The notes beneath the pieces were generated by a model. It made no database searches and was not told the origin of the DNA. It worked only from the letters and a program-made list of their open reading frames with translations. From contig MCFE01000270.1 of the NCBI GenBank assembly GCA_002104905.1, forward strand, positions 42,891 through 106,890: a DNA stretch of 64,000 nt, in the 5' to 3' direction. This document shows positions 10,825 through 64,000 of this stretch, one piece after another; positions within the stretch are counted from its first letter, which is position 1; every line of letters starts with the position of its first letter. The position numbers were made by a program, and so were the translations under genes. The DNA is from Basidiobolus meristosporus CBS 931.73. Lineage: Eukaryota > Basidiobolomycota > Basidiobolomycetes > Basidiobolales > Basidiobolaceae.

Positions 10825-12350
10825 TCAATATGATTCATGCACCAAGTTGAGTTGTGCAACTTGTGCTAATCTTGATAAGGTGTCAGCAACTGTGTTGTTT
10901 TTTCCAGGGCAGCAGACTATCTCCAAATCAAATTGCTGAATGTATTCACTCCATCTTGTCATTCTTCTAGAGAGTACTTTCTGAGTAAATATATACTTGA
11001 GGGAGGCATGATCATTCTTCACAGTGCATTTGACTCCTTCAATAGAGCATCTCCATATCTTCAAACAGTGTATTATAGCAAGCATCTCATTCTCATGCAC
11101 TGGATAGTTTTGTTCTGCTGAGTTCAGTCACATGGATTCAAAGGCAATGGTGTAGTCCTTTCCCTTGTGCTCTTGGCTCAACACTCCACCAATTGCATAA
11201 TCTGAAGCATCTGTGCAGGGAGTATACTCTTTTTGAAAGTCAGGTATTCTTAAGCTTAGTAGCTTAGCAAAATCATTCTTGAGCATCTGTAAGGCAGTCT
11301 CACCAGATATGTCCCACTTGTAGGTATTGTCTTTCTGGAAGATATCAGTTAAAGGGGCTACAATACTTGTAAAGGACTTGACAAATCTCCAATAATAGGA
11401 AACCATTCCAAGGAATGATCTGAGCTCTGATATGCTATGAGGCTGCTTCAGATTCTTGATAACTTCAGCCTTCTTAGGGTCTAAGGTTACTCCTATGCTA
11501 GTCACTATGTGTCTCATATATTCAACGTGTTCCTTGAAGAATTCACACTTGAGTAGCTTGCCATAAAGCTTGTTCTCTCTTAGCTTCTTCAAGACCTTTT
11601 CAATATGCACCAAGTGATCCTCTCCTGTCTTGCTGTATATCAGTATATCATCTAGGTAGATTATCACAAACTTGTCTAAGTACTCCTGGAAGACAGTCTG
11701 CATCAGGGTCATGAATGTTGCAGGGGCATTGGTAAGGCCAAAACTCATGACTAAGTACTTGGAATGTCTATATCTGGCCCTGAATGCTGTCTTAGGGATG
11801 TCTTCTGGCTTCACCCTAATCTGGTTGTATCCTGACATGAGGTCAATCTTGCTGAAAATAGTGGCTCCATTGAGTTGGTCCAAAAGCTCATCAATCCAAG
11901 GTGTGGGGTACTTGTTCTTCACAGTAACTGAGCTGAGGGCTCTGTAGGCAATGCCCATCCCAAGTGTTCCATCCTTCTTCTTCACAAAAAGTACTGGAGC
12001 TCCCCAAGGTGACATGCTGGGTCTGATATATCCTTGCTCCAGTAACTGATCTATTTGTCTTATCATCTCTTCCAACTCCAATGCACTCATTCTGTAGGTG
12101 TCTTACTGACTGGAGGGCTATCTCCTGTTTCAATGGCATGTTCTACATCTCTGACTGGTGAGAGGCTTACAAGCTCATCTGGAAATACATCTGAGTGATC
12201 CTTCAAAAGAGTCTGGACCTTGTGGGGTACTTGAGTAGAGGAATTCTCCTGTAATACTGACATGAGGAGCATCTGGGTGCCTTCTCTTAGTGCTCTACAG
12301 AACTGTGTCTTGCTAAGTTCACTTGTTTCACACACACTGGAATTGATCAA
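10825..12350 (-). pseudogene. Gypsy reverse transcriptase and RNase H
   Basis: The best preserved part of the element. RT at 12090-11128 runs 320 codons open, with the YLDDIL catalytic motif, VLFVKKKDGTL upstream and FSKIDLMSGYNQI containing the first catalytic Asp. The connection and RNase H start with CTDASDYAIGGVLSQ near 11200 and continue at 11100-10825 (LADTLSRLAQ-like end). The segment 12350-12087 carries the link from protease to RT. One stop or frameshift near 11115 and another near 12100 break it. Confidence 0.88.
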
Positions 12351-30442: not shown

Positions 30443-32305
30443 CTAAATGTTCATACTGACTAGTCCTAATTTTGACCTAAGATATTCAAACTTGTCTCTA
30501 GCTAATGGTTTGGTAAATATGTCTGCAATCATTTCATCTGTAGGACAGTAAACTAAGCTAACTAAGTTATTCTCTATAGCTTCACGTATGAAATGATGTC
30601 TAATATCTATATGCTTGGTTCTAGCATGAAAAGTTGGATTTCTACCTAATTGTATACATCCTTGATTATCTTGAAATAAAGTAATAGGCGTTTTTTGACA
30701 TAGGCCTAAATCTGTAAGCAGCTTTCTTAACCACATTGCTTCTTTTGTAGCTTCACAGGCTGCCATATACTCTGCCTCTGTGGTGGAAAGTGCTACAGTT
30801 GGTTGCTTTCTTGAATTCCATGAAATTGCTCCTTTATAGTAAAGAAAGGTGCATCCTGTGGTGGATCTTCTGTCTTCTAAATTTTGTCCCCAATCTGCAT
30901 CAGAGTATCCCACAAGATCTTGTTCTGAGTCCTTATAGGTGTATCTTAAGCAAATATCAGCAGTTCCTTTTAGGTATCTAAAAATCCGCTTAACTACTGC
31001 AATGTCATCAGATCCATAGTTCTGATTATGTTGGCTGACAACTCCCACTGAATATGAGATATCTGGACGTGTTCCAAGCATGATATACATCAGACTGCCA
31101 ACCATAGATTGATAAGGAAAGTCAGGGCTTTCAGATGGCACCAAGCTCTCTTGATTTGGTTGAGTTTTGACCAAGTTAAGGTTTGTCTCCATTGGGGTAG
31201 CTGCCGGTTTACAGTCTTCCATTTTGTACTTCTTTAGTATAGCTGGAATATACTTGGATTGGCTAAGGGTAATAGTCTGGGTACTTCTGTCTATGGAGAA
31301 CTTAATCCCTAAGTAGTTACTAAGTTCTCCTAGATCGGACATCTTGAACTCCTTAGATAGGCTGGATTTAGTCTCTTCCAATGTTTCTAGGTTATTGGCG
31401 GCTATAATAAGATCATCCACATATAGAGCTAATAGAACTGGATTTGCTCTATCTGGCTTATAGTATATACTATAGTCAGCATTACTTCTTTTGAAACTCA
31501 AAGATTCCAAATAAGAATCTATCTTGCAATTCCAGGCTCTTGGTGATTGTTTGAGACCATATAGTGACTTTTTAAGCTTGCAGACCAAATGGGGGTTATC
31601 TTGGTCAATAAACCCATCAGGCTGGTCCATATACACATCCTCATCAAGTTCTCCATTCAACAATGCAGTTCTTACATCCATATGATGAATAAAAAACTTA
31701 TATTTGGCTGCAATTGCCAATATTAATCTGATGGAATTAAACTTGGCTACTGGTGCAAAGGTCTCTGTGTAGTCAAGTCCTTTTGTTTGAGAGTATCCTT
31801 TGGCTACAAGTCTTGCTTTGTATCTCTCAATTGTACCATCAGCCTTGTATTTTGTCTTGAAGACCCATCTGCATCCAATTAATTTTTGGTTGATTGGTAA
31901 TTTGACCAAGTCCCAAGTTTGATTTTCCATCAGGGCCTGATATTCCTCAGTCATTGCAGATCTCCAAAACTTTGTCTGAGGGCTATTTAGGGTCTCTTTT
32001 ACAGTCTGGGGTTCATCAATATGGACTGAAAAGGCATAGGCTAAGTTTGTACCCTCATTTATATAATAATTTGGCCTATTTCTTGTCCAATTGGATCTCT
32101 GAGCATTTGATACTGGAATGATCACTTCTGGGATATTCCTGGGCACTGATTCTGGCTGAACCACAGTTGTAGAGTCCTCTGGAGTGTAAAAATTTTCATT
32201 GTTTTGCTCTGATTCAATTCTGACAATTGATGGACTTGAGATCAAATTTTTGTCATCATCTGATGTCATTTTTTGTGAAAATTCTGAATTTTCATCAAAC
32301 AACAC
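30443..32305 (-). CDS. Copia C5 polyprotein fragment: open RT-RNase H frame (620 codons)
   Basis: Minus strand, uninterrupted. RT begins around residue 120 (FWRSAMTEEYQALMENQTWDL), followed by CRWVFKTKYKADGTIERYKARLVAKG. LALYVDDLIIAANNLE holds the catalytic YVDD. Later come YLGIKFSIDR, the copia hallmark GTRPDISYSVGVVSQ and RNase H (WNSRKQPTVALSTTEAEYMA), ending in DIFTKPLARDKFEYLRSKLG. Gag, protease and integrase are absent: at 32316 it joins DT copy 3. The 3' LTR follows 12 bp after the stop. The open frame suggests recent activity or recent arrival; without an upstream half it cannot be autonomous. Confidence 0.85.
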   Translation of the reverse strand: MLFDENSEFSQKMTSDDDKNLISSPSIVRIESEQNNENFYTPEDSTTVVQPESVPRNIPEVIIPVSNAQRSNWTRNRPNYYINEGTNLAYAFSVHIDEPQTVKETLNSPQTKFWRSAMTEEYQALMENQTWDLVKLPINQKLIGCRWVFKTKYKADGTIERYKARLVAKGYSQTKGLDYTETFAPVAKFNSIRLILAIAAKYKFFIHHMDVRTALLNGELDEDVYMDQPDGFIDQDNPHLVCKLKKSLYGLKQSPRAWNCKIDSYLESLSFKRSNADYSIYYKPDRANPVLLALYVDDLIIAANNLETLEETKSSLSKEFKMSDLGELSNYLGIKFSIDRSTQTITLSQSKYIPAILKKYKMEDCKPAATPMETNLNLVKTQPNQESLVPSESPDFPYQSMVGSLMYIMLGTRPDISYSVGVVSQHNQNYGSDDIAVVKRIFRYLKGTADICLRYTYKDSEQDLVGYSDADWGQNLEDRRSTTGCTFLYYKGAISWNSRKQPTVALSTTEAEYMAACEATKEAMWLRKLLTDLGLCQKTPITLFQDNQGCIQLGRNPTFHARTKHIDIRHHFIREAIENNLVSLVYCPTDEMIADIFTKPLARDKFEYLRSKLGLVSMNI

Positions 32306-39124: not shown

Positions 39125-41434
39125 TCATGGGTCATACAACTCCCAGCTTCTGAGCCATTCACGTGACTCAAGGTCTTTGGCAGGGTAATCAAATCCGAAG
39201 GCAAATGGTGCAAAGTAAACAAACACTCCAGCCAACAAGACCAGAGCTCCAACCAGCACCGCCCATTGGATGAGCGAGGAGCGCTCTCGAGTGCCGAAGT
39301 CGATCAAGAAGCTGGTCATAAAAATGGCGTAGTAGAGAGCGGGAAAATAATGATGCAGGTATGTGACTCGACCCATTAGAAAGAAGGGGAAGTAGTGCAG
39401 AAACCATCCAGTGAACAGCATCTTCCCGACCTGAAGGAACTTATTTGCCCGGATGGAATTCCTGAAGAGAAGTATGTTGCGTTGACTAGCGATGACCTGG
39501 GCTGCGTATATACTTGCGAAGATAACAATGGAGGCTGCCCCACCCCACCATATTACGGGATGGCCGATCAACCAGTACTTTGTGTCTTCATTTCCCCATG
39601 AGCACATCCTCAGCGCGGTGTTAAGCAGTGGCCAGTCTACGGGTGCCGAGGCGAGCTTATCGATACGATCAGAATCAGGGACGAGCGCGTTGTTTGTCTT
39701 CCACATCGCATGATTCAAGTGTAGAAAATCGGCCCAAAAGCTGGTCTGCAGATCGTGCGGCTCGGCTTTGGGTAAATGCTCATTTTGATGGCTCTCGATG
39801 TTCCATATAGTGTTCGATCCCCACCCCCCCTCCGGATCACAAGTAACCTCTCCTTGGCCATATCCCCATTCTGGTAAAGTTTTCGTGTTGGTCCTCAGAA
39901 CGCACCCCGTCGATCGATGACGGAGACGGAATCTCGTGGTTAGAGAGCGAATTTTTTCTGGCTTGGCCACCACCATATCGTCTAGAATCTCTATATACCA
40001 GTAATCATTGGTGTCTCCGAAAGTGCTATTTCCATATGCGCTCGCTTCGAATTGACCTTCGGTCAATGGGGCTGGAATTCCGTGTGAATGAAGATTTCCA
40101 CCAGTAGTCACGTGGGCCAATCGTATCAAGTCCCCGTTTTTCACTAGGGAGACATCTTCACTGCGAGGCTGGGATTCCTCCCTGGGCTTTAGCACGAACC
40201 AGTTGTTATTTTCGTCTTTATGGCCATATATTGTGACTTGCTGTTGATGAGATCCCGTGGGGTAAAAGTGAGCGTGTGAGTGTAACAGACCGTTGAACTC
40301 GCCATTACTCCTCAAAGTTATGGAGGAGCCATAAGCCAGTTCTAAAGGGACGTTCTTCAGATCGCTACCCTCCAGGTTAGCTTGAAATAGCGATGACATG
40401 ACTCCATCGCTTTTACCGCTCTTCGTTAGTAGAGAAAAGTGGACTTTGAAGCAGGCAACGTATATCCCGAACGGTATAAGGATCAAGCAAATCACTCTGG
40501 AAAGCCAATGCATCACATACTTGACCTTGGGCATCTCGTAGTCACCAAACTTCACCCATAGATCTTCGATCGTCTGAACTCCAACCCAGGCCGTGGTGAA
40601 CAGGCCCACCCACTTGACACTCGCCACACAGCCTATACTTACTCCGGTGAACACCAGCCAGCTCCACCACTTTAGGGAAAACGCGCTATTGTGGTGATAG
40701 CGAAACCCAGAGAATCCCCAAAGAGTGCTTGCTGTGAAGCAAAGAAGTATAGGATCTAGCAGAATGAATCTACTGATTGTGAGTGTAGTTGTATCCATCA
40801 GCACCATACATGCGCACAGAAACGCTCCCTTCTTTGTGTATCCAAGATTCAGACAGGTCCAATAGGATAGTGGTATCATCAGGGCTCCAAAAGCGGCAGT
40901 AAACTGCCTCATCCGAAGGTAATCCAGATTCTCGGGATAATTTTCTCCGCTGTTAAAGTTGTACGACCCATCGTAGCCAGCAAGGTATCCGCCCAGTCCG
41001 ACAAGCATTTTTCCTAGCGGCGGGTGCACATCATGGTAGAATTCATGGCGCAGATAATATGAGCCAAACTAAATAGAGAGTTAGTCGATGCTCGGCCAAG
41101 CTGGGTACAGTGGTGCACAAACTTTTCCGAAGTGAGCTTCGTCCCAGACCACCTTGTTGGCCTTGCCCAGTTGATAGAAGCGTGTAAAGATGGCCATAGA
41201 TGTCAGAAAGATAACGGACCCCCATACAGCAAAGGTGTTTTTCTAGTTGAAATGTAAATAAATGGGGTTGAATGAAACCGTACGTTGGCGAGCTATTACC
41301 CATTGAGAGAATGTGACTCTGCTTATGCTGCCAGGTGTTTTTTCTTTGGCTGTGAAGTCGTCCGGCACGGCAGGTCCAACTGGCTTTTTTAGTTGTTGCT
41401 TTTTATGACGAAGACGCAGGTTGTCCCATACCAT
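39125..41434 (-). CDS. Protein O-mannosyltransferase, PMT2 type (gene 1)
   Basis: Three exons (41434-41300, 41242-41123, 41068-39125) give about 732 residues. The enzyme transfers mannose from dolichyl-phosphate mannose to Ser/Thr in the ER lumen. The first luminal loop has the catalytic WDEAHFGKF and [21 protein letters not shown]-like sequence ([16 protein letters not shown]) follows. Multiple membrane helices occupy both ends. A central luminal MIR region lies at about residues 310-500 ([37 protein letters not shown]). The C-terminal helices contain [16 protein letters not shown]. The [17 protein letters not shown] segment is typical of the PMT2 subfamily. It is divergently arranged with a paralog at 42533, about 1.1 kb apart. 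Codon use is less biased than in the paralog. Confidence 0.93.
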
Positions 41435-42532: not shown

Positions 42533-44833
42533 ATGGTATCTGAACCTTTGCGGCAAAGACACGCCAAAAAACCTGGGTCGAAACTACCCTCGAACAATGA
42601 GGTTTTGGAAACAAAGGATGTCAAGGTTCATTCGGAACCTGTGAAACAATCCAAGGTGAGTCGCTCAGGCGGCTGTTGTGTTTGGTCCTTTGGCTCATCA
42701 ACCCATGCAATTAACTTGTAGTGCTCGCATATTGACTGGATCGTGGTGCTGATCCTGACAGGACTCTCGATTTTCACCCATTACTTCCAGCTAGCCAAAG
42801 CTGGAAGAGTCATCTGGGATGAATCTCACTTTGGAAAGGTAGTAATTGGTTGCAATGTTCGGCCGCCACATCTTGGCTAACAGGCTTATCATACCTAGTT
42901 TGGCTCTTTCTACCTTCGTCGCGAGTTTTACCACGACGTTCATCCTCCACTTGGTAAGATGTTGGTCGCACTAGGCGGCTACCTGTCCGGCTACGACGGA
43001 TCGTTTGATTTCGGAAGCGGCGGCACTTACACCGAAGGAATGAACTATCATGGAATGCGCATGTTCACCGCATTTTTCGGCATGGTCATGGTGCCCGTAG
43101 CGTACCTGACCGCTTTGAATTTCGGGTATACGCGTAAATGCGCCTTCTTGGCTGCTTCCATGGTGTTATTGGATACAACTACATTGGTGATCACCAGGTT
43201 TATCCTTCTTGATCCGATGCTGCTTTGCTTCACTGCGACCACCGGGCTAGCCTTGTCTTACTTCCGTAAACACAAGCACGCCGAATTCTCCACCAAGTGG
43301 TGGATCGGGCTTGTTGCAACCGGCGTCAACCTGGGACTCGTGGCTTCCGTCAAGTGGATCGGCCTTTTCACCATCGCCTGGGTTGGCTGGGATACCATCG
43401 AGGAATTGTGGGACAAGTTCGGGGACTACAAGATGCCAAAGTTGCGCTATCTTCAACACTGGATTGCTCGCGCAATCTGCTTGATCGTCATACCTTTGAG
43501 TATTTATGTCGCCTGCTTCAAGATTCACTTTGCTATCCTGACCAGAAGTGGCAAAGACGATGGTGTCATGAGCTCATTGTTCCAGGCCAACTTGGAAGGT
43601 AGTGAGCTCAAGTCCGTTCCTCTCGAATTAGCCTATGGTTCTGTGGTGACTGTGCATGGGTCTACTGGGCTCCTTCATTCCCATTCCCATCTTTACCCTG
43701 AAGGTTCGAAGCAACAGCAAATCACGACGTATACTTACAAGGACTCCAACAACGAATGGAAGGTTCTGAAGCCAAGAAACGTGGAGCAACCAGCCGAGGA
43801 AGATGCTGTGCTGGTGAAGGATGGGGACTTGATCAGACTGGTCCATACCGCCACCCAGGCCAATCTCCACGCGCACAAAGTTCAAGCCCCAGTCAGCAAA
43901 GCCCACTGGGAAGCCAGTGCTTACGGAAACCTTACATTTGGTGATCAGAACGATTACTGGTATATCGAGGTTCTTGACGATGTCAACACGAAGACCGAAT
44001 ATATCCGCACCCTGACCACCCGATTCCGCTTACGTCACCAAGGGACTGGATGCATCCTCAGGACCACTTCGGAGAATCTTCCTGCCTGGGGCTACAACCA
44101 AGGGGAAGTCGCCTGCGATAAGGAGACCAGCTACTGGGGACAGGGTGCCGTGTGGAATATCGAGGGACATGTTAACCAGCACCTGCCAATTGCCGAGCCC
44201 CAAAACTTCAAAACCAGCTTCTGGCATGACTTCGTTCACCTCAACATTGCTATGTGGAGAACAAACAATGGGTTGATCCCTGACCCAGACAAGGACGATC
44301 ACCTGGCATCTCAGCCCTACGAATGGCCCCTTTTGATAACCGCCATGAGAATGTGCTCGTGGGGAGATAACGACATCAAGTTCTGGCTAGTGGGCCATCC
44401 CTTTATCTGGTGGGGCAGCATCCTGGCATTGTGCAGTTTCGTCGGCATCACTGGGCTCTACCTGATCATGCAACAGAGAAGAATTCAGCTATTCGGCAGC
44501 TCGGCCAGATCCAACGAATTCTTCCCTCTTGGAAGATTACTGTTTGTCGGCTGGTTCCTGCACTATTTCCCGTTCTTCTTGATGGGACGTGTCACCTACC
44601 TGCATCATTATTTCCCAGCGTTGTACTTCGCCATCTTCATGTTCACCTTCTTGATCGACTTCTTCATCAAGAACCGCTCGGAGTTCGTTCAATGGGCCGT
44701 GGTGTTGGCCGTATTCTCGGTTACCCTGTGGGTGTTCCTGTTGTACAGTCCGTTCGTATTCGGATTTGATTATCCAGCCCGGGATCTGGCCAATAGAGAG
44801 CTGCTTAATCGTTGGAAGTTATACAATCGGTAA
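42533..44833 (+). CDS. Protein O-mannosyltransferase, PMT2 type (gene 2)
   Basis: Three exons (42533-42655, 42722-42838, 42899-44833) give about 724 residues. Intron positions match gene 1: both have an intron after the basic N-terminal cytoplasmic stretch and one after the WDE-HFGK motif. Catalytic-loop motifs VIWDESHFGK and [13 protein letters not shown] are present, then [31 protein letters not shown], the MIR repeats (GLLHSHSHLYPEGS, NLHAHKV, RFRLRHQGTGCILRT) and [16 protein letters not shown]. It acts in the ER membrane, usually as a heterodimer with a PMT1-type partner not seen here. Codons favour C-ending forms strongly, more than in gene 1, which suggests higher expression. AATAAA at 44895 is a likely poly(A) signal. 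The 3' end faces the WLM protease gene. Confidence 0.94.
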
Positions 44834-56399: not shown

Positions 56400-57440
56400 A
56401 TGTATTCCCCGCTTTATAGTTTCACCCCATTCGACCTATTTGGCCAGCAACATATACATCAGCAGCCATCTTGGTATTTTCAGCAATCGCAGCCAGAAGA
56501 ATATCTCTTTCCCGAACACATCGCCACGCAGCCTAGCCTGTACAGATATCCCATGATGCAACCTCGACATTGCCATTCCCAACAGCCAGGAAAATGCTAT
56601 GTACTACCATCCAGACACCCAGGTCCACTTGCTCGGGAGTTCTTAAGCCCTCGCTCCACTACAGGATACATGGATATTGAGGAATCGCAGCAGCCTTTCG
56701 AAGTTCGCCCAGGTTGGTCTGAAGACGAGCAATCGTCCGATTCCGAGCAGGATGTAGATTTGGGCCAGCCAGCATTCACAAGCTCCCAGTCTACCCACAG
56801 TGGCACTCAACAAGTCAACGAGCGATCAAGAAGCAGGAAAAGATCGCACGACACCCTGAAGCCACAGCAGCCACACAAGAAACGTAGTGGAAAAGAAAAG
56901 AGACGCGACCGTAAGTCCAAAAAAACCCATCGCAAAGAAACCAAGAGATGGAAAGAAGCGGTCCAGCAATTCAGGTATAATCGGGCAGTAAAGCTCATCC
57001 AACGTCAGTGGCGTCTTTACCAACAAAAGCGTAGAGAAGAGGCGTCCAGAAAGATCGTGGGATTTATCCATGCGCGCCTAGAAATCCGTCAAGCACAGCA
57101 GGTTCTACAGCATCTCCGACAACTGCGCTCTTTCGAGACAGAACTTGATCTCACACACGAACGCCAGGCCCCTAGAGTTTTCAAGCGGCCCCTCAAGTTT
57201 GCTTCCGATTCAACCCCGGAATCGATAAAAATCCCGCCGGTGAAGGAAAACCAGTGCTATCTTGGGTACGAAGATGCTTTGCTAAGGCTACTCATGCGTA
57301 TTGATGGAGTTGACAGTATTGGGTCGGACATTGTGCGGCATGCCAGAAAGTCCTTGGTGAATAAGACCCAGTCCCTCTTGGATCAACTCGATGAATTCAA
57401 GAAATCCCAATATAGCACGTTGGTTACAAGTCGCAATTAA
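56400..57440 (+). CDS. BAG-domain co-chaperone with IQ motif
   Basis: An intronless frame of 346 codons. Residues 1-130 are Gln/Pro/His-rich and probably disordered. An acidic Ser stretch (SEDEQSSDSEQDVD) lies at 107-120 and a basic Lys/Arg-rich segment at 145-190. An IQ-type calmodulin motif is around 193-215 (AVKLIQRQWRLYQQKRR). The BAG domain covers about 288-336 (LGYEDALLRLLMRIDGVDSI...RKSLVNKTQSLLDQLDEFK), with the expected R-x2-RK-x-LV core that binds the Hsp70 ATPase domain. The IQ plus BAG arrangement is known from plant BAG5-7-type proteins and some fungi. It probably works as an Hsp70 nucleotide-exchange factor regulated by calmodulin. The ATG at 56400 starts the full frame; the alternative frame at 56302 overlaps it and is a shadow. 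Confidence 0.85.
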   Translation: MYSPLYSFTPFDLFGQQHIHQQPSWYFQQSQPEEYLFPEHIATQPSLYRYPMMQPRHCHSQQPGKCYVLPSRHPGPLAREFLSPRSTTGYMDIEESQQPFEVRPGWSEDEQSSDSEQDVDLGQPAFTSSQSTHSGTQQVNERSRSRKRSHDTLKPQQPHKKRSGKEKRRDRKSKKTHRKETKRWKEAVQQFRYNRAVKLIQRQWRLYQQKRREEASRKIVGFIHARLEIRQAQQVLQHLRQLRSFETELDLTHERQAPRVFKRPLKFASDSTPESIKIPPVKENQCYLGYEDALLRLLMRIDGVDSIGSDIVRHARKSLVNKTQSLLDQLDEFKKSQYSTLVTSRN

Positions 57441-58687: not shown

Positions 58688-58695
58688 TTAGGGGG
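58688..58695 (+). repeat. Minimal telomeric junction (TTAGGGGG)
   Basis: The innermost junction between chromosomal DNA and the LINE stack, at the 3' end of ORF1-type LINE copy B. It carries just over one TTAGGG unit. Confidence 0.7.
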
Positions 58696-59410
58696 AGGGA
58701 AAGTCACCAAAGTAGGTGAAATCTTTATTTGATTTCAGACAAGTCTAACTACAAATAAAGAAGCCAGCTGGGAATAGAAGATTCCCAAAGTAAAAACTAA
58801 GTTGACTATAAATAAATCTAAGCTAAAGTTAAGGCAGTATCCCAGAGTACACTGGAGTTCAGGTTCATGGGGGAGTGAAGTAGATAAGCTTGAGAGATAT
58901 AATAATCTTTTAAGAAGTGGGTAACAGCAGGTGAAGGGGAGTTTTTGATAAGTGAAGTGAATCTTGAGATCAGAGATTCCTCTAATGAGAAGGTCTTGTA
59001 AACTGGAGAATCAGGAAACTCTTTGAAGGCATGGTCAGTAGGTTCCCAGTAAAACTGGTCAGAGACATTTTGAGAGAATCGTTTAGCAATACTTTTGTCA
59101 AGTACTACCTCCAGAGTGTGATGGTTGATAAATCTCATGTTGACAATCTTGGATAAGTTGTAACCTTGTTGCTTGAGATACATCCTATGCTCAGATATAG
59201 GAATAAACTCCACATTGGCAAAGTAGCAGACAGCCCAGTCAGTAGCAGGAGGCAAATCAGAAGTGGCAGGAAACTTTCTTTTGGTCTTGGGAGGAGCAGC
59301 AGGATGTCTTGAGGAAGCAGGAACAGACTTTTTGACAACTTCAGAGTAGGAAGAGTGAGCAGGAGCAGATGATTCTTGGGGAGTCTTGATGGCAGGAAGA
59401 GTTGGCACAC
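58696..59410 (-). mobile_element. Telomeric LINE, ORF1-type, copy B (5'-truncated)
   Basis: Minus strand. The ORF1 protein is truncated at its start (from about 59410; the frame ends at 58818) and the coiled-coil part is lost. It has the segments TPQESSAPAHSSYSE, DWAVCYFANVEFIPISEH and SDQFYWEPTDHAF. The 3' UTR of about 120 nt ends in the hairpin TCACC-x-GGTGA and TTTCCCTCCCC. About 97% alike to copy A by eye. At its 5' side it joins the tail of RT-type copy B through TTAGGG. Confidence 0.85.
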
Positions 59411-59419
59411 TTAGGGGGG
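59411..59419 (+). repeat. Short telomeric junction (TTAGGGGGG)
   Basis: A single TTAGGG-like unit between ORF1-type copy B and the 3' tail of RT-type copy B. Confidence 0.75.
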
Positions 59420-60488
59420 AGACAGTCACCAACAGGTGAAATCTTTATTTCAGTTGAAACAAAGAAGCCAGCGCTACTGTTGTAGCTTTGATACAAGAGT
59501 GTGTAGCTGAGGGGAATTTGTAGGTAAGTTAATAAGAAGTGATGATAGTTCTTCAGTGCTCAAGACACTGTTCAGTGGGAAGGGGGATAGCAAGAGAGGT
59601 AAGAATGACTTGTGAACAACATTAATGAGGGGAATGTGATAAGGATTGATGTTCATCATAAAGGGAGTGTGCTGCTGCAGATATTGCTGCCAAAGGTCTG
59701 TCAAGTACTTCAGGTAGGCCAGCTTGGGTTTTTCTGACTGCAGAATGTAGTGAGCAAACTTCTTGACTTCAGGATCTCCAAGTATAGTTCTCCAGCAGGA
59801 GCCAGGTATTGTGTGGTGTGTTCTCTTCCAGGCCTTAATCAGTGGGTTGTTGCAGTTGTGAAGTCTGAGGTATAATCTGGTTCTAAGGTAGAGAAGTCTG
59901 ATCTTATAGGGCATAAACCCAAAAGCACCAAGAATAGCATGTCTGTAGGGGCATTCAGGCAAATGAGGCACCAAGGAGGTAATGCACCATACTGCAAACT
60001 TGTCAAGCTTAGTGCAGTCTCTAGAAGTAAGAGAGAGAGAAGTGGTAAGCCAAATTCCAGGACAGGGAAGACAAACTGCTTGAGTAGAAGGAGGCAGCTG
60101 GGAGCTGAAGTTGTAGGAGGAGTAACAGCCAGTAGCTTGTGGAGTGCCTGTCTTGCTAGGATAATTCTCTTCTTCAGGTGTGCTCCAGAGTCTAGTCCAG
60201 TAGGAAGGAAAGGAAAGCCAAGATATGTAGCAGAAACCTGAGCAGGTAGAGTGAAGTTCTCCAAGTTGATGGGAGAGCCCAAAGGTACTGTCTTTGCAAT
60301 GGAAAGCTGGAGATTATTCTTCTGCAGATACTGGTGGATGGTCTGGGAGTCTTGTTGCACATTGGAGGAGGATATTCTGATGTCATCAGCAAAGAGAGTA
60401 ACCAGGCAGTCAGCTGAGAGTCTTGGGAAATCATTCAGGAAGATGGCAAACAGTATAGGACCAAGCACAGAGCCTTGAACCACTCCAT
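59420..60488 (-). mobile_element. Telomeric LINE, RT-type, copy B (5'-truncated)
   Basis: Minus strand. It begins in the middle of RT at NGVVQGSVLGPILF, directly after telomeric repeat. It retains LVTLFADDIRISSS (catalytic ADD), then the thumb and C-terminal region to HTLVSKLQQ at 59474. A 2-nt insertion in a GA run near 60031-60040 shifts the frame. The 3' UTR of about 55 nt ends in the hairpin TCACC-TGTT-GGTGA and CTGTCTCCCCCC. Confidence 0.9.
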
Positions 60489-60510
60489 TTAGGGTTAGGG
60501 TTAGGGGGGG
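60489..60510 (+). repeat. Interstitial telomeric tract, about 3 repeats
   Basis: TTAGGGTTAGGGTTAGGG plus extra G. It separates RT-type copy B from the 3' tail of RT-type copy A. Confidence 0.9.
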
Positions 60511-62712
60511 AGACAGTCACCAACAGGTGAAATCTTTATTTCAGTTGAAACAAAGAAGCCAGCGCTACTGTTGTAGCTTTGATACAAGAGTGTGTAGCTG
60601 AGGGGAATTTGTAGGTAAGTTAATAAGAAGTGATGATAGCTCTTCAGTGCTCAAGACACTGTTCAGTGGGAAGGGGGGTAGCAAGAGAGGTAAGAATGAC
60701 TTGTGAACAACATTAATGAGGGGAATGCGATAAGGATTGATATTCATCATAAATGAAGTGTGCTGCTGCAGATATTGCTGCCAAAGGTCTGTCAAGTACT
60801 TCAGGTAGGCCAGCTTGGGTTTTTCTGACTGCAGAATAAAGTGAGCAAACTTCTTGACTTCAGGATCTCCAAGTATAGTTCTCCAGCAGGAGCCAGGTGT
60901 TGTGTGGTGTGTTCTCTTCCAGGCCTTAATCAGTGGGTTGTTGCAGTTGTGAAGTCTGAGGTATAATCTGGTTCTAAGGTAGAGAAGTCTGATCTTATAG
61001 GGCATAAACCCAAAAGCACCAAGAATAGCATGTCTGTAGGGGCATTCAGGCAAATGAGGCACCAAGGAGGTAATGCACCATACTGCAAACTTGTCAAGCT
61101 TAGTGCAGTCTCTAGAAGTAAGAGAGAGAAGTGGTAAGCCAAATTCCAGGACAGGGAAGACAAACTGCTTGAGTAGAAGGAGGCAGCTGGGAGCTGAAGT
61201 TGTAGGAGGAGTAACAGCCAACAGCTTGTGGAGTGCCTGTCTTGCAAGGATAATTCTCTTCTTCAGGTGTGCTCCAGAGTCTAGTCCAGTAGGAAGGAAA
61301 GGAAAGCCAAGATATGTAGCAGAAACCTGAGCAGGTAGAGTGGAGTTCTCCAAGATGATGGGAGAGCCCAAAGGTACTGTCTTTGCAATGGAAAGCTGGA
61401 GATTATTCTTCTGCAGATACTGGTGGATGGTCTGGGAGTATTGTTGTACATTGGAGGAGGATATTTGATGTCATCAGCAAAGAGAGTAACCAGGCAGTCA
61501 GCTGAGAGTCTTGGGAAGTCATTCAGGAAGATGGCAAACAGTATAGGACCAAGCACAGAGCCTTGAACCACTCCATTAGGAACTGAGAACACAGCTGATT
61601 GCTCACTTGGGTGCAGAATTCTTGCTTGTGGATCCAGAAACAGAGACCTGATAAGGAGGGTGAGAGAGGTACTGGAGAAGCATTGCAGCTTGGACCAAAG
61701 CAGATTTCTGTCAACTGAATCAAAGGCCTTAGTAATATCAAACAGAACAGAGGGATACTTGCACTGGAGAGAGTGATCTTGGCTAAGTATGACTGCATAT
61801 TCCAAGGAGAGGCCAGGAACAAAGCCAAACTGTGCAGGATGAAACTTGAGGGAGTCAGAGTAGAGCTCCTGAGCAAGCAGAAGCTCAAACACCTTTCTGC
61901 AGGAGGGCAGCAGAGATATTGGCCTGTAGGAGCTAGGATCCGGGTGCTTTCCTTTACCCTTATACAGTGGCAGAACATTTGCAAAGGACCATTCCACAGG
62001 AGTAGAAAGCTGGGCTGAGCATTGTTGAAACAGTGGAAGCAGAAGTGCAGACATGGCCTTGGTACTAGTCTTCAGAAGCTCATAGGGGATTGTGTCCACA
62101 CCTGGAGCAGTAGAGTTGGGAAGCCTCTTGAGCACATTATGGATTCTCCTTTGATCAAGTGCAATTGGGATGGGCAGAGTCTTGAAGTCAGGATGAAAGC
62201 CAGGAGTTGAGTACTGCTTTGTAGAGAAGAAGATGTTAGCCAGCTGTTCTGTTGAAGGTAACTTCCTGGAAGAGGGCCTCATTGCTCTGTAGAGTCTTGA
62301 TACTGTTCTTGTTATAGAGTTGGAAGATTGCAGAGGCAAAGAACTCATAATATGATCCCAGAGCTGAGTATGCAGAGTGTGGTGAATTGCCTTGGAGTGG
62401 TGTATTGCTGTCAGGAGGAGTTTCTCTGTTTTTGGGTTAGGGAAACTCAGGTAGCTTTGTTGCAGGGCTGAAACAATGGATTCCCATTTTCTTGAGGCAA
62501 CAGCAGTAGTCTTGCATGGCAGTGAGAGGGAGGCAGACACCAGAATCAGATGCTTCACAAAGAGCCAGGCATAGTTGAGATCATCTGGCAGAGAAAGTAG
62601 CAAACTGGCAAGCTTCAAGTAGTTCCCAAAGTCTTTCTTCTGATTCTTTGTAGCTTTGTGGGTGAGCACAGTAAGTTTTGGCAGCTTCTTCTTCACAACT
62701 GGTTGCATAGAA
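60511..62712 (-). mobile_element. Telomeric LINE, RT-type, copy A (5'-truncated)
   Basis: Minus strand. From 62708 the frame (MQPVVKKKLPKL...) runs to about 61465, where a 1-nt deletion relative to copy B shifts it, and continues at 61371-60565. RT motifs in order: VLPLYKGKGKHPDPSSYRPI, QFGFVPGLSLEYAVI, VLFDITKAFDSVDRNLLW (first Asp), NGVVQGSVLGPILF and LVTLFADDI. No endonuclease domain precedes RT: the copy begins just after telomeric repeat, so its 5' part is lost. The 3' end has the hairpin. It ends at telomeric repeat on both sides. Confidence 0.92.
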
Positions 62713-62734
62713 GGGTTAGGGTTAGGGTTAGGGG
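62713..62734 (+). repeat. Interstitial telomeric tract, about 3.5 repeats
   Basis: GGGTTAGGGTTAGGGTTAGGGG between RT-type copy A and the 3' tail of ORF1-type copy A. Confidence 0.92.
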
Positions 62735-62856
62735 AGGGAAAGTCACCAAGGTAGGTGAAATCTTTATTTGATTGCAGACAAGTCTAACTACAAATAAAGA
62801 AGCCAGCTGGGAATAGAAGATTCCCAAAGTAAACACTAAGTTGAATATGAATAAAT

Positions 62857-63660
62857 CTAAGCTAAAGTTAAGGCAGTATCCCAGAGTACACTGGAGTTCA
62901 GGTTCATGGGGGAGTGAAGTAGATAAGCTTGAGAGATATAATAATCTTTGAGGAAGTGGGTAACAGCAGGTGAAGGGGAGTTTTTGATAAGTGAAGTGAA
63001 TCTTGAGAGCAGAGATTCCTCTAATGAGAAGGTCTTGTAAACTGGAGAATCTGGAAACTCTTTAAAGGCATGGTCAGTAGGTTCCCAGTAAAACTGGTCA
63101 GAGACATTTTGAGAGAACTCTTTAGCAATACTTTTGTCAAGTACTACCTCCAGAGTGTGATGGTTGATAAATCTCATGTTAACAATCTTGGATAAATTGT
63201 AACCTTGTTGCTTGAGATACATCCTATGCTCAGATAGAGGAATGAACTCCACATTGGCAAAGTAGCAGACAGCCCAGTCAGTAGCAGGAGGCAAATCAGA
63301 AGTAGCAGGAAACTTTCTTTTAGTCTTGGGAGGAGCAGCAGGATGTCTTGAGGAAGCAGGAACAGGCTTTTTGACAGCTTCAGAGTAGGAAGAGTGAGCA
63401 GGAGCAGATGATTCTTGGGGAGTCTTGTTGACAGGAACAGCTGGCAGAGAGACAATAGATTCTTGCAGATCAGAGAAGGCAGAAAACAGCTTTTGAACTT
63501 GTTTCTTGAGTAAAGCATTTTCAGCTTCAACAAGTGCAAGCCTTTCCTCAAGGAAGGAAATCTGAAGGGAATGGAGGGAAGGCATAAGAAATAAGAAGAA
63601 GAGGGTAAGATGGGGTGGGTGGGTGGGAAAATTAGCAGGGAGAAGAGAAGGAAGGAGCAA
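62857..63660 (-). CDS. ORF1 protein of the telomeric ORF1-type LINE
   Basis: 267 codons, open. Residues 1-30 are hydrophobic and Pro/His-rich; 30-75 form a leucine-rich coiled coil (LEERLALVEAENALLKKQVQ). A Ser/Pro/Lys-rich linker (KTKRKFPATSD) follows. A globular region of about 120-240 (DWAVCYFANVEFIPLSEH, VNMRFINHHTLEVVLDKS) has the beta-alpha-beta look of RRM-like ORF1 proteins. There is no CCHC knuckle. It may bind element RNA and bring it to telomeres, as ORF1/Gag proteins of other LINEs do; that is inference. The start may be a later Met (at residue 27, MPSLHSLQISF). Confidence 0.8.
   Translation of the reverse strand: MLLPSLLPANFPTHPPHLTLFFLFLMPSLHSLQISFLEERLALVEAENALLKKQVQKLFSAFSDLQESIVSLPAVPVNKTPQESSAPAHSSYSEAVKKPVPASSRHPAAPPKTKRKFPATSDLPPATDWAVCYFANVEFIPLSEHRMYLKQQGYNLSKIVNMRFINHHTLEVVLDKSIAKEFSQNVSDQFYWEPTDHAFKEFPDSPVYKTFSLEESLLSRFTSLIKNSPSPAVTHFLKDYYISQAYLLHSPMNLNSSVLWDTALTLA
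63626..63651. repeat. 26-bp direct repeat, inner copy
   Basis: GGAAAATTAGCAGGGAGAAG plus six more bases in the 5' UTR of ORF1-type copy A. Repeated without change at 63727-63752. Confidence 0.85.
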
Positions 63661-63726
63661 AAATTCCAGAAGTCAGAATTTATAGATGGATGGACAAGGG
63701 TAGATGGATGGATTATTCCTGGGTTA

Positions 63727-63752
63727 GGAAAATTAGCAGGGAGAAGAGAAGG
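63727..63752. repeat. 26-bp direct repeat, outer copy at the telomere boundary
   Basis: Identical to 63626-63651. It is placed between one GGGTTAGG unit on the inside and the long telomere tract outside. Confidence 0.85.
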
Positions 63753-64000
63753 GTTAGGGTTAGGGTTAGGGTTAGGGTTAGGGTTAGGGTTAGGGTTAGG
63801 GTTAGGGTTAGGGTTAGGGTTAGGGTTAGGGTTAGGGTTAGGGTTAGGGTTAGGGTTAGGGTTAGGGTTAGGGTTAGGGTTAGGGTTAGGGTTAGGGTTA
63901 GGGTTAGGGTTAGGGTTAGGGTTAGGGTTAGGGTTAGGGTTAGGGTTAGGGTTAGGGTTAGGGTTAGGGTTAGGGTTAGGGTTAGGGTTAGGGTTAGGTT
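63751..64000 (+). repeat. Chromosome-end telomere, (TTAGGG)n
   Basis: About 41 uninterrupted TTAGGG units running 5' to 3' towards the right end, which is the G-rich orientation of a right telomere. The window's last bases (TTAGGTT) lack a G, probably a sequencing or assembly artefact at the end. Confidence 0.98.

What the first reader, a model, noticed from the sequence alone, without database searches (positions are those of the whole stretch)
58688..63752. Two-component telomeric retrotransposon stack: ORF1-only and RT-bearing LINEs alternating in TTAGGG repeat
Seen directly: from the telomere inwards, ORF1-type A, RT-type A, RT-type B and ORF1-type B lie head to tail on the minus strand, each with its 3' end facing inwards, and are separated by TTAGGG tracts of 1 to 3.5 units. 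The ORF1-type ends right after its ORF1 plus about 120 nt of 3' UTR, both times, so it is a family of its own and not the front half of the RT element. Established knowledge: Drosophila HeT-A supplies Gag only while TART/TAHRE carry RT; TRAS/SART and fungal MoTeR elements insert into telomeric repeats. Inference: the ORF1-only element is mobilised in trans by the RT of its partner, giving a HeT-A/TART-like division of labour in a fungus that still has telomerase-type repeats.
Basis: partly seen in the sequence, partly recalled or inferred. Interest (0 to 1): 0.88.

Follow-up and report, generated by a model that had tools for sequence, protein, structure and literature searches.

The report
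Telomere retrotransposon guild with gag-only elements
The chromosome ends of this fungus are layered with several kinds of jumping genes that share the same RNA tail, including kinds that make no copying enzyme and probably borrow one from their neighbours, much as in fruit-fly telomeres but in an organism that still has ordinary telomeres.

Summary
In detail: from the terminal TTAGGG tract inwards lie ORF1-only (O1), RT-bearing (R1), R1 and O1 copies, minus strand, 3' ends inwards, with 1-3 TTAGGG units at each junction. Genome-wide they belong to a larger guild; five families were found: two LINEs (R1, R2: ORF1, TGA-CTA, endonuclease-RT), two ORF1-only families (O1, O2) and a 0.5-kb SINE-like element (S). 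All share a two-hairpin 3' tail. Its core pattern matches 1,646 times (reversed control 0); 87 of the first 100 listed run into CCCTAA within 16 nt. O1 is not a recent deletion of R1: R1 has its own ORF1, 35% identical, and the best 40 O1 DNA matches all reach the same 3' end. Mobilisation in trans is inferred, not shown; R1 and R2 carry their own ORF1, so mutual HeT-A/TART-style dependence is unlikely. MoTeR1/MoTeR2 is a published fungal precedent for an RT-bearing plus RT-less pair in TTAGGG arrays. New here: coding, apparently constrained gag-only families and a telomeric SINE-like element sharing one tail with LINEs.

The parts
63754..63993 (+). terminal telomere, 40 perfect TTAGGG units at the contig end
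62734..63753 (-). O1-A: ORF1-only element with one 5' repeat unit (TATA inside), the common 5' end, ORF1 and 3' tail
62857..63585 (-). O1-A ORF1, 242 aa: long N-terminal helix (4-45), RRM-like core (104-170), helical C-terminus in an AlphaFold2 model
62736..62804 (-). O1-A 3' tail, two hairpins
62716..62733 (+). 3 TTAGGG units between O1-A and R1-A
60507..62715 (-). R1-A: 5'-truncated RT-bearing LINE copy; reading frame interrupted
61284..62708 (-). open part of R1-A ORF2 with RVT_1 (E 5.7e-21)
60489..60506 (+). 3 TTAGGG units between R1-A and R1-B
59416..60489 (-). R1-B: more strongly 5'-truncated R1 copy (C-terminal part of ORF2 and 3' tail)
59411..59416 (+). 1 TTAGGG unit between R1-B and O1-B
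58695..59407 (-). O1-B: 5'-truncated ORF1-only copy
58688..58693 (+). single TTAGGG unit joining the array to other subtelomeric DNA

Best explanation
The window shows a piece of a telomere-bound retroelement guild. R1 and R2 are LINEs that express ORF1 and, probably by read-through of a conserved UGA-CUA stop, an ORF1-ORF2 (endonuclease-RT) fusion. O1 and O2 are gag-only elements with an ORF1 of the same family, probably an RNA-binding protein, but no RT. S is a SINE-like RNA with a Pol III-type promoter. Each RNA ends in the same two hairpins. A LINE RT (R1, R2 or both; for O1 and S the tail leans slightly to R2) binds that tail and starts copying at a TTAGGG 3' end of the chromosome, so copies lie 3' inwards; telomerase then caps the outer end. 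Shown: anatomy, orientation, shared tail, fixed 3' ends, a common 5' end in many O1 and S copies, TGA-CTA junctions. Inferred: priming site, read-through, mobilisation in trans, which RT serves which RNA, capping.
For: Tail: two hairpins in all five families (six sequences folded, z -2.3 to -4.2; 97.3% of cells paired against 36-50% when slid). Genome: 1,646 tail matches, reversed control 0; 87 of the first 100 listed are followed within 16 nt by CCCTAA. O1 3' end: the best 40 DNA matches run from the ORF start to the same end (40 of 468 candidates scored). O1 5' end: 10 of 24 distinct copies start at the same base beside CCCTAA although they hold 1 to 10 repeat units, and the start of a unit lies 35 nt after the TATA of the unit before it, as expected of an RNA intermediate. 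S: 14 of 14 near-full copies begin in the same register and hold no TTTT (95.6% of shuffles do; 22 further hits are partial); 15 distinct heads are each preceded by CCA and CCCTAA-type sequence. An A-to-B box pair occurs in 3 of 100,000 mononucleotide shuffles of S, 14 times in the fetched loci, always in the S head sequence, and not in the window. ORF1: O1-O2 45%, R1-R2 48%, O1-R1 35% identical at E 4e-21, so the gag-only and RT lineages are old. O1 ORF1 dN/dS about 0.40 over 29 distinct intact copies; 66 of 70 full-span hits have no stop (my count). Junction: 27 of 27 ORF1-ORF2 borders read TGA CTA; 14 of 15 distinct contexts with enough flank are open on both sides in that frame. Stem and loop recognition of 3' tails by LINE ORF2 is published for zebrafish LINEs (PMC4176376, abstract read). 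Telomerase RNA-binding domain present.
Against: No movement was observed; arrays may also grow by telomere recombination, as MoTeR arrays do (PMC7367193, passages). The 40 O1 matches are the best-scoring ones, so complete copies were favoured; 14 of 24 distinct O1 5' regions do not have the common end beside CCCTAA. The dN/dS set is mostly the top 30 by protein score among 70 full-span copies, required to be intact, which lowers dN/dS; variants shared by 4 or more copies are 7 N: 3 S (ratio 0.97). Tail covariation rests on one exchanged pair, helix 2 never varies, and further pair types are no more than in shuffles. The lean to R2 is weak: in the terminal part O1 matches R2 in 27 of 29 columns and R1 in 25 of 32, but over the whole tail, gaps left out, O1-R1 (48 of 52) is not below O1-R2 (62 of 70). 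Endonuclease Pfam matches are under the cut-offs (R1) or absent (R2); only short motifs are there (meaning recalled). S has no tRNA match in Rfam, and the box pattern was written after S was seen. 13 of 100 tails do not run into CCCTAA within 16 nt. Read-through was not tested.
Confidence: 0.73

Rival explanations
1. The arrays are spread mainly by recombination between chromosome ends (break-induced replication at interstitial TTAGGG). The ORF1-only and short elements arose long ago and are carried along passively.
For: MoTeR arrays in Magnaporthe grow and shrink this way (PMC7367193, passages read). 20 R1 hits have the same score (903.3 bits), which would fit copied blocks as well as a recent burst.
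Against: Recombination alone does not explain a common O1 5' end 35 nt after a TATA box with 1 to 10 repeat units, the shared S 5' end, or mixed family order with an exact 3' tail at the junctions.
Confidence: 0.14
2. True HeT-A/TART-style division of labour: the gag-only elements supply a telomere-homing ORF1 protein that R1 and R2 need, while R1 and R2 supply RT.
For: Most full-span O1 and O2 hits keep an open ORF1, with signs of constraint for O1; HeT-A ORF1p is reported to determine the location of TART proteins (PMC4700185, passages read).
Against: R1 and R2 carry their own ORF1 of the same family and give 54 of the first 100 tails.
Confidence: 0.1
3. O1 is a recent internal-deletion derivative of a LINE.
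For: O1 shares the ORF1 family and the tail with R1 and R2.
Against: O1 and O2 ORF1 are 45% alike and further from R-type ORF1; the best 40 matches share their 3' end; no O-type ORF1 with an RT was seen.
Confidence: 0.03

Closest known systems
MoTeR1 / MoTeR2 (Magnaporthe oryzae)
   Same: Fungus with TTAGGG telomeres; RT-bearing and RT-less elements in mixed head-to-tail arrays separated by short TTAGGG tracts; the RT-less one is thought to use its partner's RT (PMC7367193, passages read).
   Different: MoTeR1 has a restriction-like endonuclease; MoTeR2 shares 860 bp of 5' and 77 bp of 3' sequence with MoTeR1 around a 786-bp stretch without obvious function. Here the LINEs have two ORFs and apurinic-type motifs, and the RT-less elements keep a coding ORF1.
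FoTeR (Fusarium oxysporum)
   Same: Telomere-bound non-LTR element in a fungus (PMC12857005, abstract and passages read).
   Different: Restriction-like endonuclease, one large ORF; the words non-autonomous, MoTeR2 and SINE do not occur in its main text.
HeT-A / TART / TAHRE (Drosophila)
   Same: A Gag-only element beside RT-bearing elements at chromosome ends; the Gag-only one depends on a foreign RT (PMC4700185, passages read; 3'-inwards orientation recalled).
   Different: The fly has no telomerase gene and no canonical repeats; HeT-A's promoter lies in the 3' UTR, here a TATA lies in each 5' repeat unit. I know of no shared hairpin tail or SINE tier there (recalled).
TRAS / SART (Bombyx)
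   Same: LINEs bound to telomeric repeats (PMC7265360, abstract; PMC10088271, passages).
   Different: SART1 needs a long poly(A) tail for accuracy; here the 3' end is two hairpins and a C-rich end without poly(A).
Stringent LINE/SINE pairs with a shared 3' stem-loop (zebrafish ZfL2; eel UnaL2/UnaSINE1 recalled)
   Same: LINE ORF2 recognises stem and loop of the 3' tail (PMC4176376, abstract read).
   Different: To my knowledge those are dispersed in the genome; here the set sits in telomeric arrays.

Membership tests
LINE (non-LTR retrotransposon): R1 and R2 | LINE-type reverse transcriptase | tested here: met
   RVT_1 E 2.6e-25 (R1) and 1.6e-20 (R2); best solved relatives by sequence are LINE-1 ORF2
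LINE (non-LTR retrotransposon): R1 and R2 | apurinic-type endonuclease | tested here: inconclusive
   short motifs LNCNS, GDLN/GDIN and SDH present, but R1 Pfam matches are below cut-off and R2 has none
MoTeR1/FoTeR | restriction-like endonuclease with CCHC-type motif and RHD / R(A/P)D | tested here: not met
   CX1-3CX6-8HX3-4C, RHD, RAD, RPD and KPD absent from R1 and R2 ORF2 (motifs from the FoTeR paper)
MoTeR2-like RT-less partner | long 5' and 3' stretches shared with the RT element | tested here: not met
   only the short 3' tail and the ORF1 family are shared
HeT-A-like gag-only element | Gag/ORF1 but no RT, telomere-bound, 3' inwards | tested here: met
HeT-A-like gag-only element | moved by a partner's RT | not testable with these tools
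   only indirect: shared tail
HeT-A-like gag-only element | stands in for a missing telomerase | tested here: not met
   TTAGGG ends and a telomerase RNA-binding domain are present
SINE: S element | short element with Pol III A and B boxes and a LINE-like 3' tail | tested here: met
   (box consensus recalled; transcription not tested)
SINE: S element | tRNA fold or descent from a named tRNA | tested here: inconclusive
   no tRNA match up to E 10
L1 ORF1p-like protein (coiled coil, RRM, C-terminal domain): O1 ORF1 | coiled coil followed by an RRM-type domain | tested here: inconclusive

The most novel reading that the evidence does not exclude
Chromosome ends of this telomerase-bearing fungus host a three-tier telomeric retroelement guild: LINEs, two old gag-only families and a telomere-bound SINE-like element compete for the same RTs through one two-hairpin tail. 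The gag-only ORF1 protein brings these RNAs to chromosome ends in trans, so the RT elements in turn depend on it, and the guild lengthens telomeres together with telomerase.
Probability: 0.13. Interest if true: 0.92.

Novelty: new variant of a known kind. Interest (0 to 1): 0.72.

Why it matters
Gag-only telomeric elements are best known from flies, which have no telomerase. Two old gag-only families living beside TTAGGG repeats and a telomerase domain would show that such sharing of work can arise without telomerase loss. A SINE-like element held to telomeres by the same RNA tail gives a natural test of how a LINE RT chooses its templates: five tails, same stems, different loops, with more than 1,600 tail matches in one genome.

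Tried and rejected
ORF1-only as the front half of the RT element: rejected, R1 and R2 have their own ORF1. R1 as the sole partner: left open, the tail comparison leans slightly to R2 and is not decisive. S as a true tRNA: no Rfam tRNA match even at E 10; the mir-318 match in L071 (below its gathering score) was taken as chance. Telomerase seeding of truncated copies: of 18 junctions found, 4 have intervening bases and were left out; 11 of the other 14 share 1 or more bases with the repeat against 47% expected (p 0.018), only a hint. My first structure for pair counting was mis-registered in helix 2 and was redone. L1 ORF1p did not appear by name among the fold matches, which excludes nothing. 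Organism: not established; genome size and contig count reminded me of a zygomycete-type assembly, but no call confirmed it. Prior art: in the listings (capped lists; titles and abstract starts seen) I noticed no paper on a telomere-bound SINE in a fungus. A paper on Aspergillus SINEs and a frog genome paper with the words subtelomeric SINE were not opened. Subscription journals are mostly not held.

Full report
What was checked. The four elements, their order, their strand and the TTAGGG tracts between them are present at the stated coordinates. The window ends at the end of its contig C503 with 40 perfect TTAGGG units.

What the rest of the genome shows. A search with the O1 ORF1 gave 154 matches (150 of 550 candidates scored); with the R1 RT, 90 (90 of 1,257 scored); with the R2 endonuclease region, 150 (150 of 286 scored), R2 copies first and then copies at about 39% identity that lie at R1 places; with the O2 ORF1, 145 (144 of 543 scored), O2 copies first and then O1 copies at about 48%; with S DNA, 75 (40 of 416 scored). 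These counts are lower bounds. By my reading, 59 of 60 fetched ORF1 and RT loci have the 3' end inwards relative to the nearer contig end; the exception is in a 12-kb contig.

The families. R1: a 5' UTR with an internal double CCCTAA, ORF1 (502 aa from the first ATG of a 523-codon frame), then an ORF2 frame of 922 aa; about 4.5 kb, the 5' end placed from two copies only. R2: ORF1 (318 aa seen in a 5'-truncated copy) and an ORF2 frame of 949 aa. R1 and R2 ORF2 are 47% identical. O1: 242-aa ORF1, 101-nt 5' repeat units and about 120 nt of 3' UTR; O2: 265-aa ORF1 and its own 5' repeats. S: about 0.52 kb. Counted by hairpin loop, the first 100 listed 3' tails are R1 48, S 28, O1 12, R2 6 and O2 6 (typed; loops assigned from copies read; three one-off R1-like or O1-like loops were put with their nearest family). 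So RT elements outnumber ORF1-only elements in that list.

The shared tail. Each family ends in GGCTTCTTT, a spacer, AATAAAGATTTCACC, a 4-6 nt loop, GGTGA and a C-rich end that mostly runs into CCCTAA. Two hairpins form in all six sequences folded (minimum energies -12.1 to -17.4 kcal/mol, z -2.29 to -4.16). The consensus has 15 pairs; 97.3% of cells pair, against 36-50% when slid; but 6 of 10 pairs of helix 1 and all 5 of helix 2 never vary, only one pair is exchanged on both sides, and S breaks two pairs. Conservation, not covariation, carries the case. The tail with CCCTAA within 16 nt matches 1,638 times (some places twice, control 0); without CCCTAA 1,646 times (control 0). Of the first 100, 87 are also and 13 are not.

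Ends. In the DNA search the best 40 O1 matches span 1-867, ORF start to 3' end; three further matches are short pieces. Of 24 distinct O1 5' regions, 10 start at the same base beside CCCTAA with 1 to 10 repeat units; the other 14 are truncated, have other neighbours or run on from another unit. The start of a unit lies 35 nt after the TATA of the preceding one. S: 14 of 14 near-full copies begin in the same register, 22 hits are partial; 15 distinct heads are preceded by CCA and CCCTAA-type sequence.

How it works, best reading. RNAs starting in the 5' repeats or at the S boxes end in the shared tail. LINE ORF2 binds the tail, uses a TTAGGG 3' end as primer and lays the copy down 3' inwards; telomerase adds TTAGGG to the outer end, including on shortened copies. 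The steps after transcription are inferred from layout, from published stem-loop recognition (PMC4176376, abstract) and from telomere-targeting LINEs (PMC7265360, abstract). Which RT serves which RNA is open: in the terminal part O1 is nearest to R2 (27 of 29 columns; R1 25 of 32), and S too (R2 24 of 28; R1 22 of 30), but over the whole tail with gaps left out O1-R1 (48 of 52) is not below O1-R2 (62 of 70).

Comparison with known systems. The fungal layout is close to MoTeR1/MoTeR2 (PMC7367193, passages), but R1 and R2 lack the restriction-like endonuclease motifs, and the RT-less partners keep a coding ORF1. The gag-only idea matches HeT-A (PMC4700185, passages), but R elements have their own ORF1 and a telomerase domain is present (one of its two pieces holds a stop, possibly an intron edge). 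The list of telomeric elements in PMC10088271 (passages) names MoTeR1 alone for fungi; FoTeR came later (PMC12857005, abstract and passages).

Verdict. Observation confirmed; interpretation partly supported; new variant of a known kind. The main uncertainties are whether O1, O2 and S move by the RT of R1 or R2, and whether the LINEs get anything in return.

Noticed in passing
whole genome G000: TTAGGG x3 matches 8,002 times on the + strand and 103 times on the - strand, so nearly all telomeric tracts lie at right-hand contig ends; there may be around 200 telomeric ends (rough inference at about 40 matches each).
   Followed up: no
L071:923-2491 (R1 ORF1): R1 ORF1 has an N-terminal cysteine motif (CPNCGNKG ... 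CKC, zinc-ribbon-like by eye) that O1 and O2 lack; only weak Pfam matches below cut-off.
   Followed up: partly
L031 and L036, 5' repeats: An 83-nt variant of the 101-nt O1 5' repeat unit, nine spacings in a row in L031 and one in L036.
   Followed up: no
window 39125-41029 (-) and 42959-44833 (+): Two divergent protein O-mannosyltransferase genes (PMT, MIR, PMT_4TMC).
   Followed up: partly
window 11128-12090 and 30443-32305 (-): Pieces of LTR-type polyproteins: RVT_1 with RNase H, and copia-type RVT_2; a copia-type gag-pol piece also in L069.
   Followed up: partly
window 56400-57440 (+): 346-aa ORF with a BAG domain, the last ORF of 250 aa or more before the array.
   Followed up: no
C880:173109-173423: Two matches to the telomerase RNA-binding domain, over the cut-off, one with a TAG inside.
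   Followed up: no
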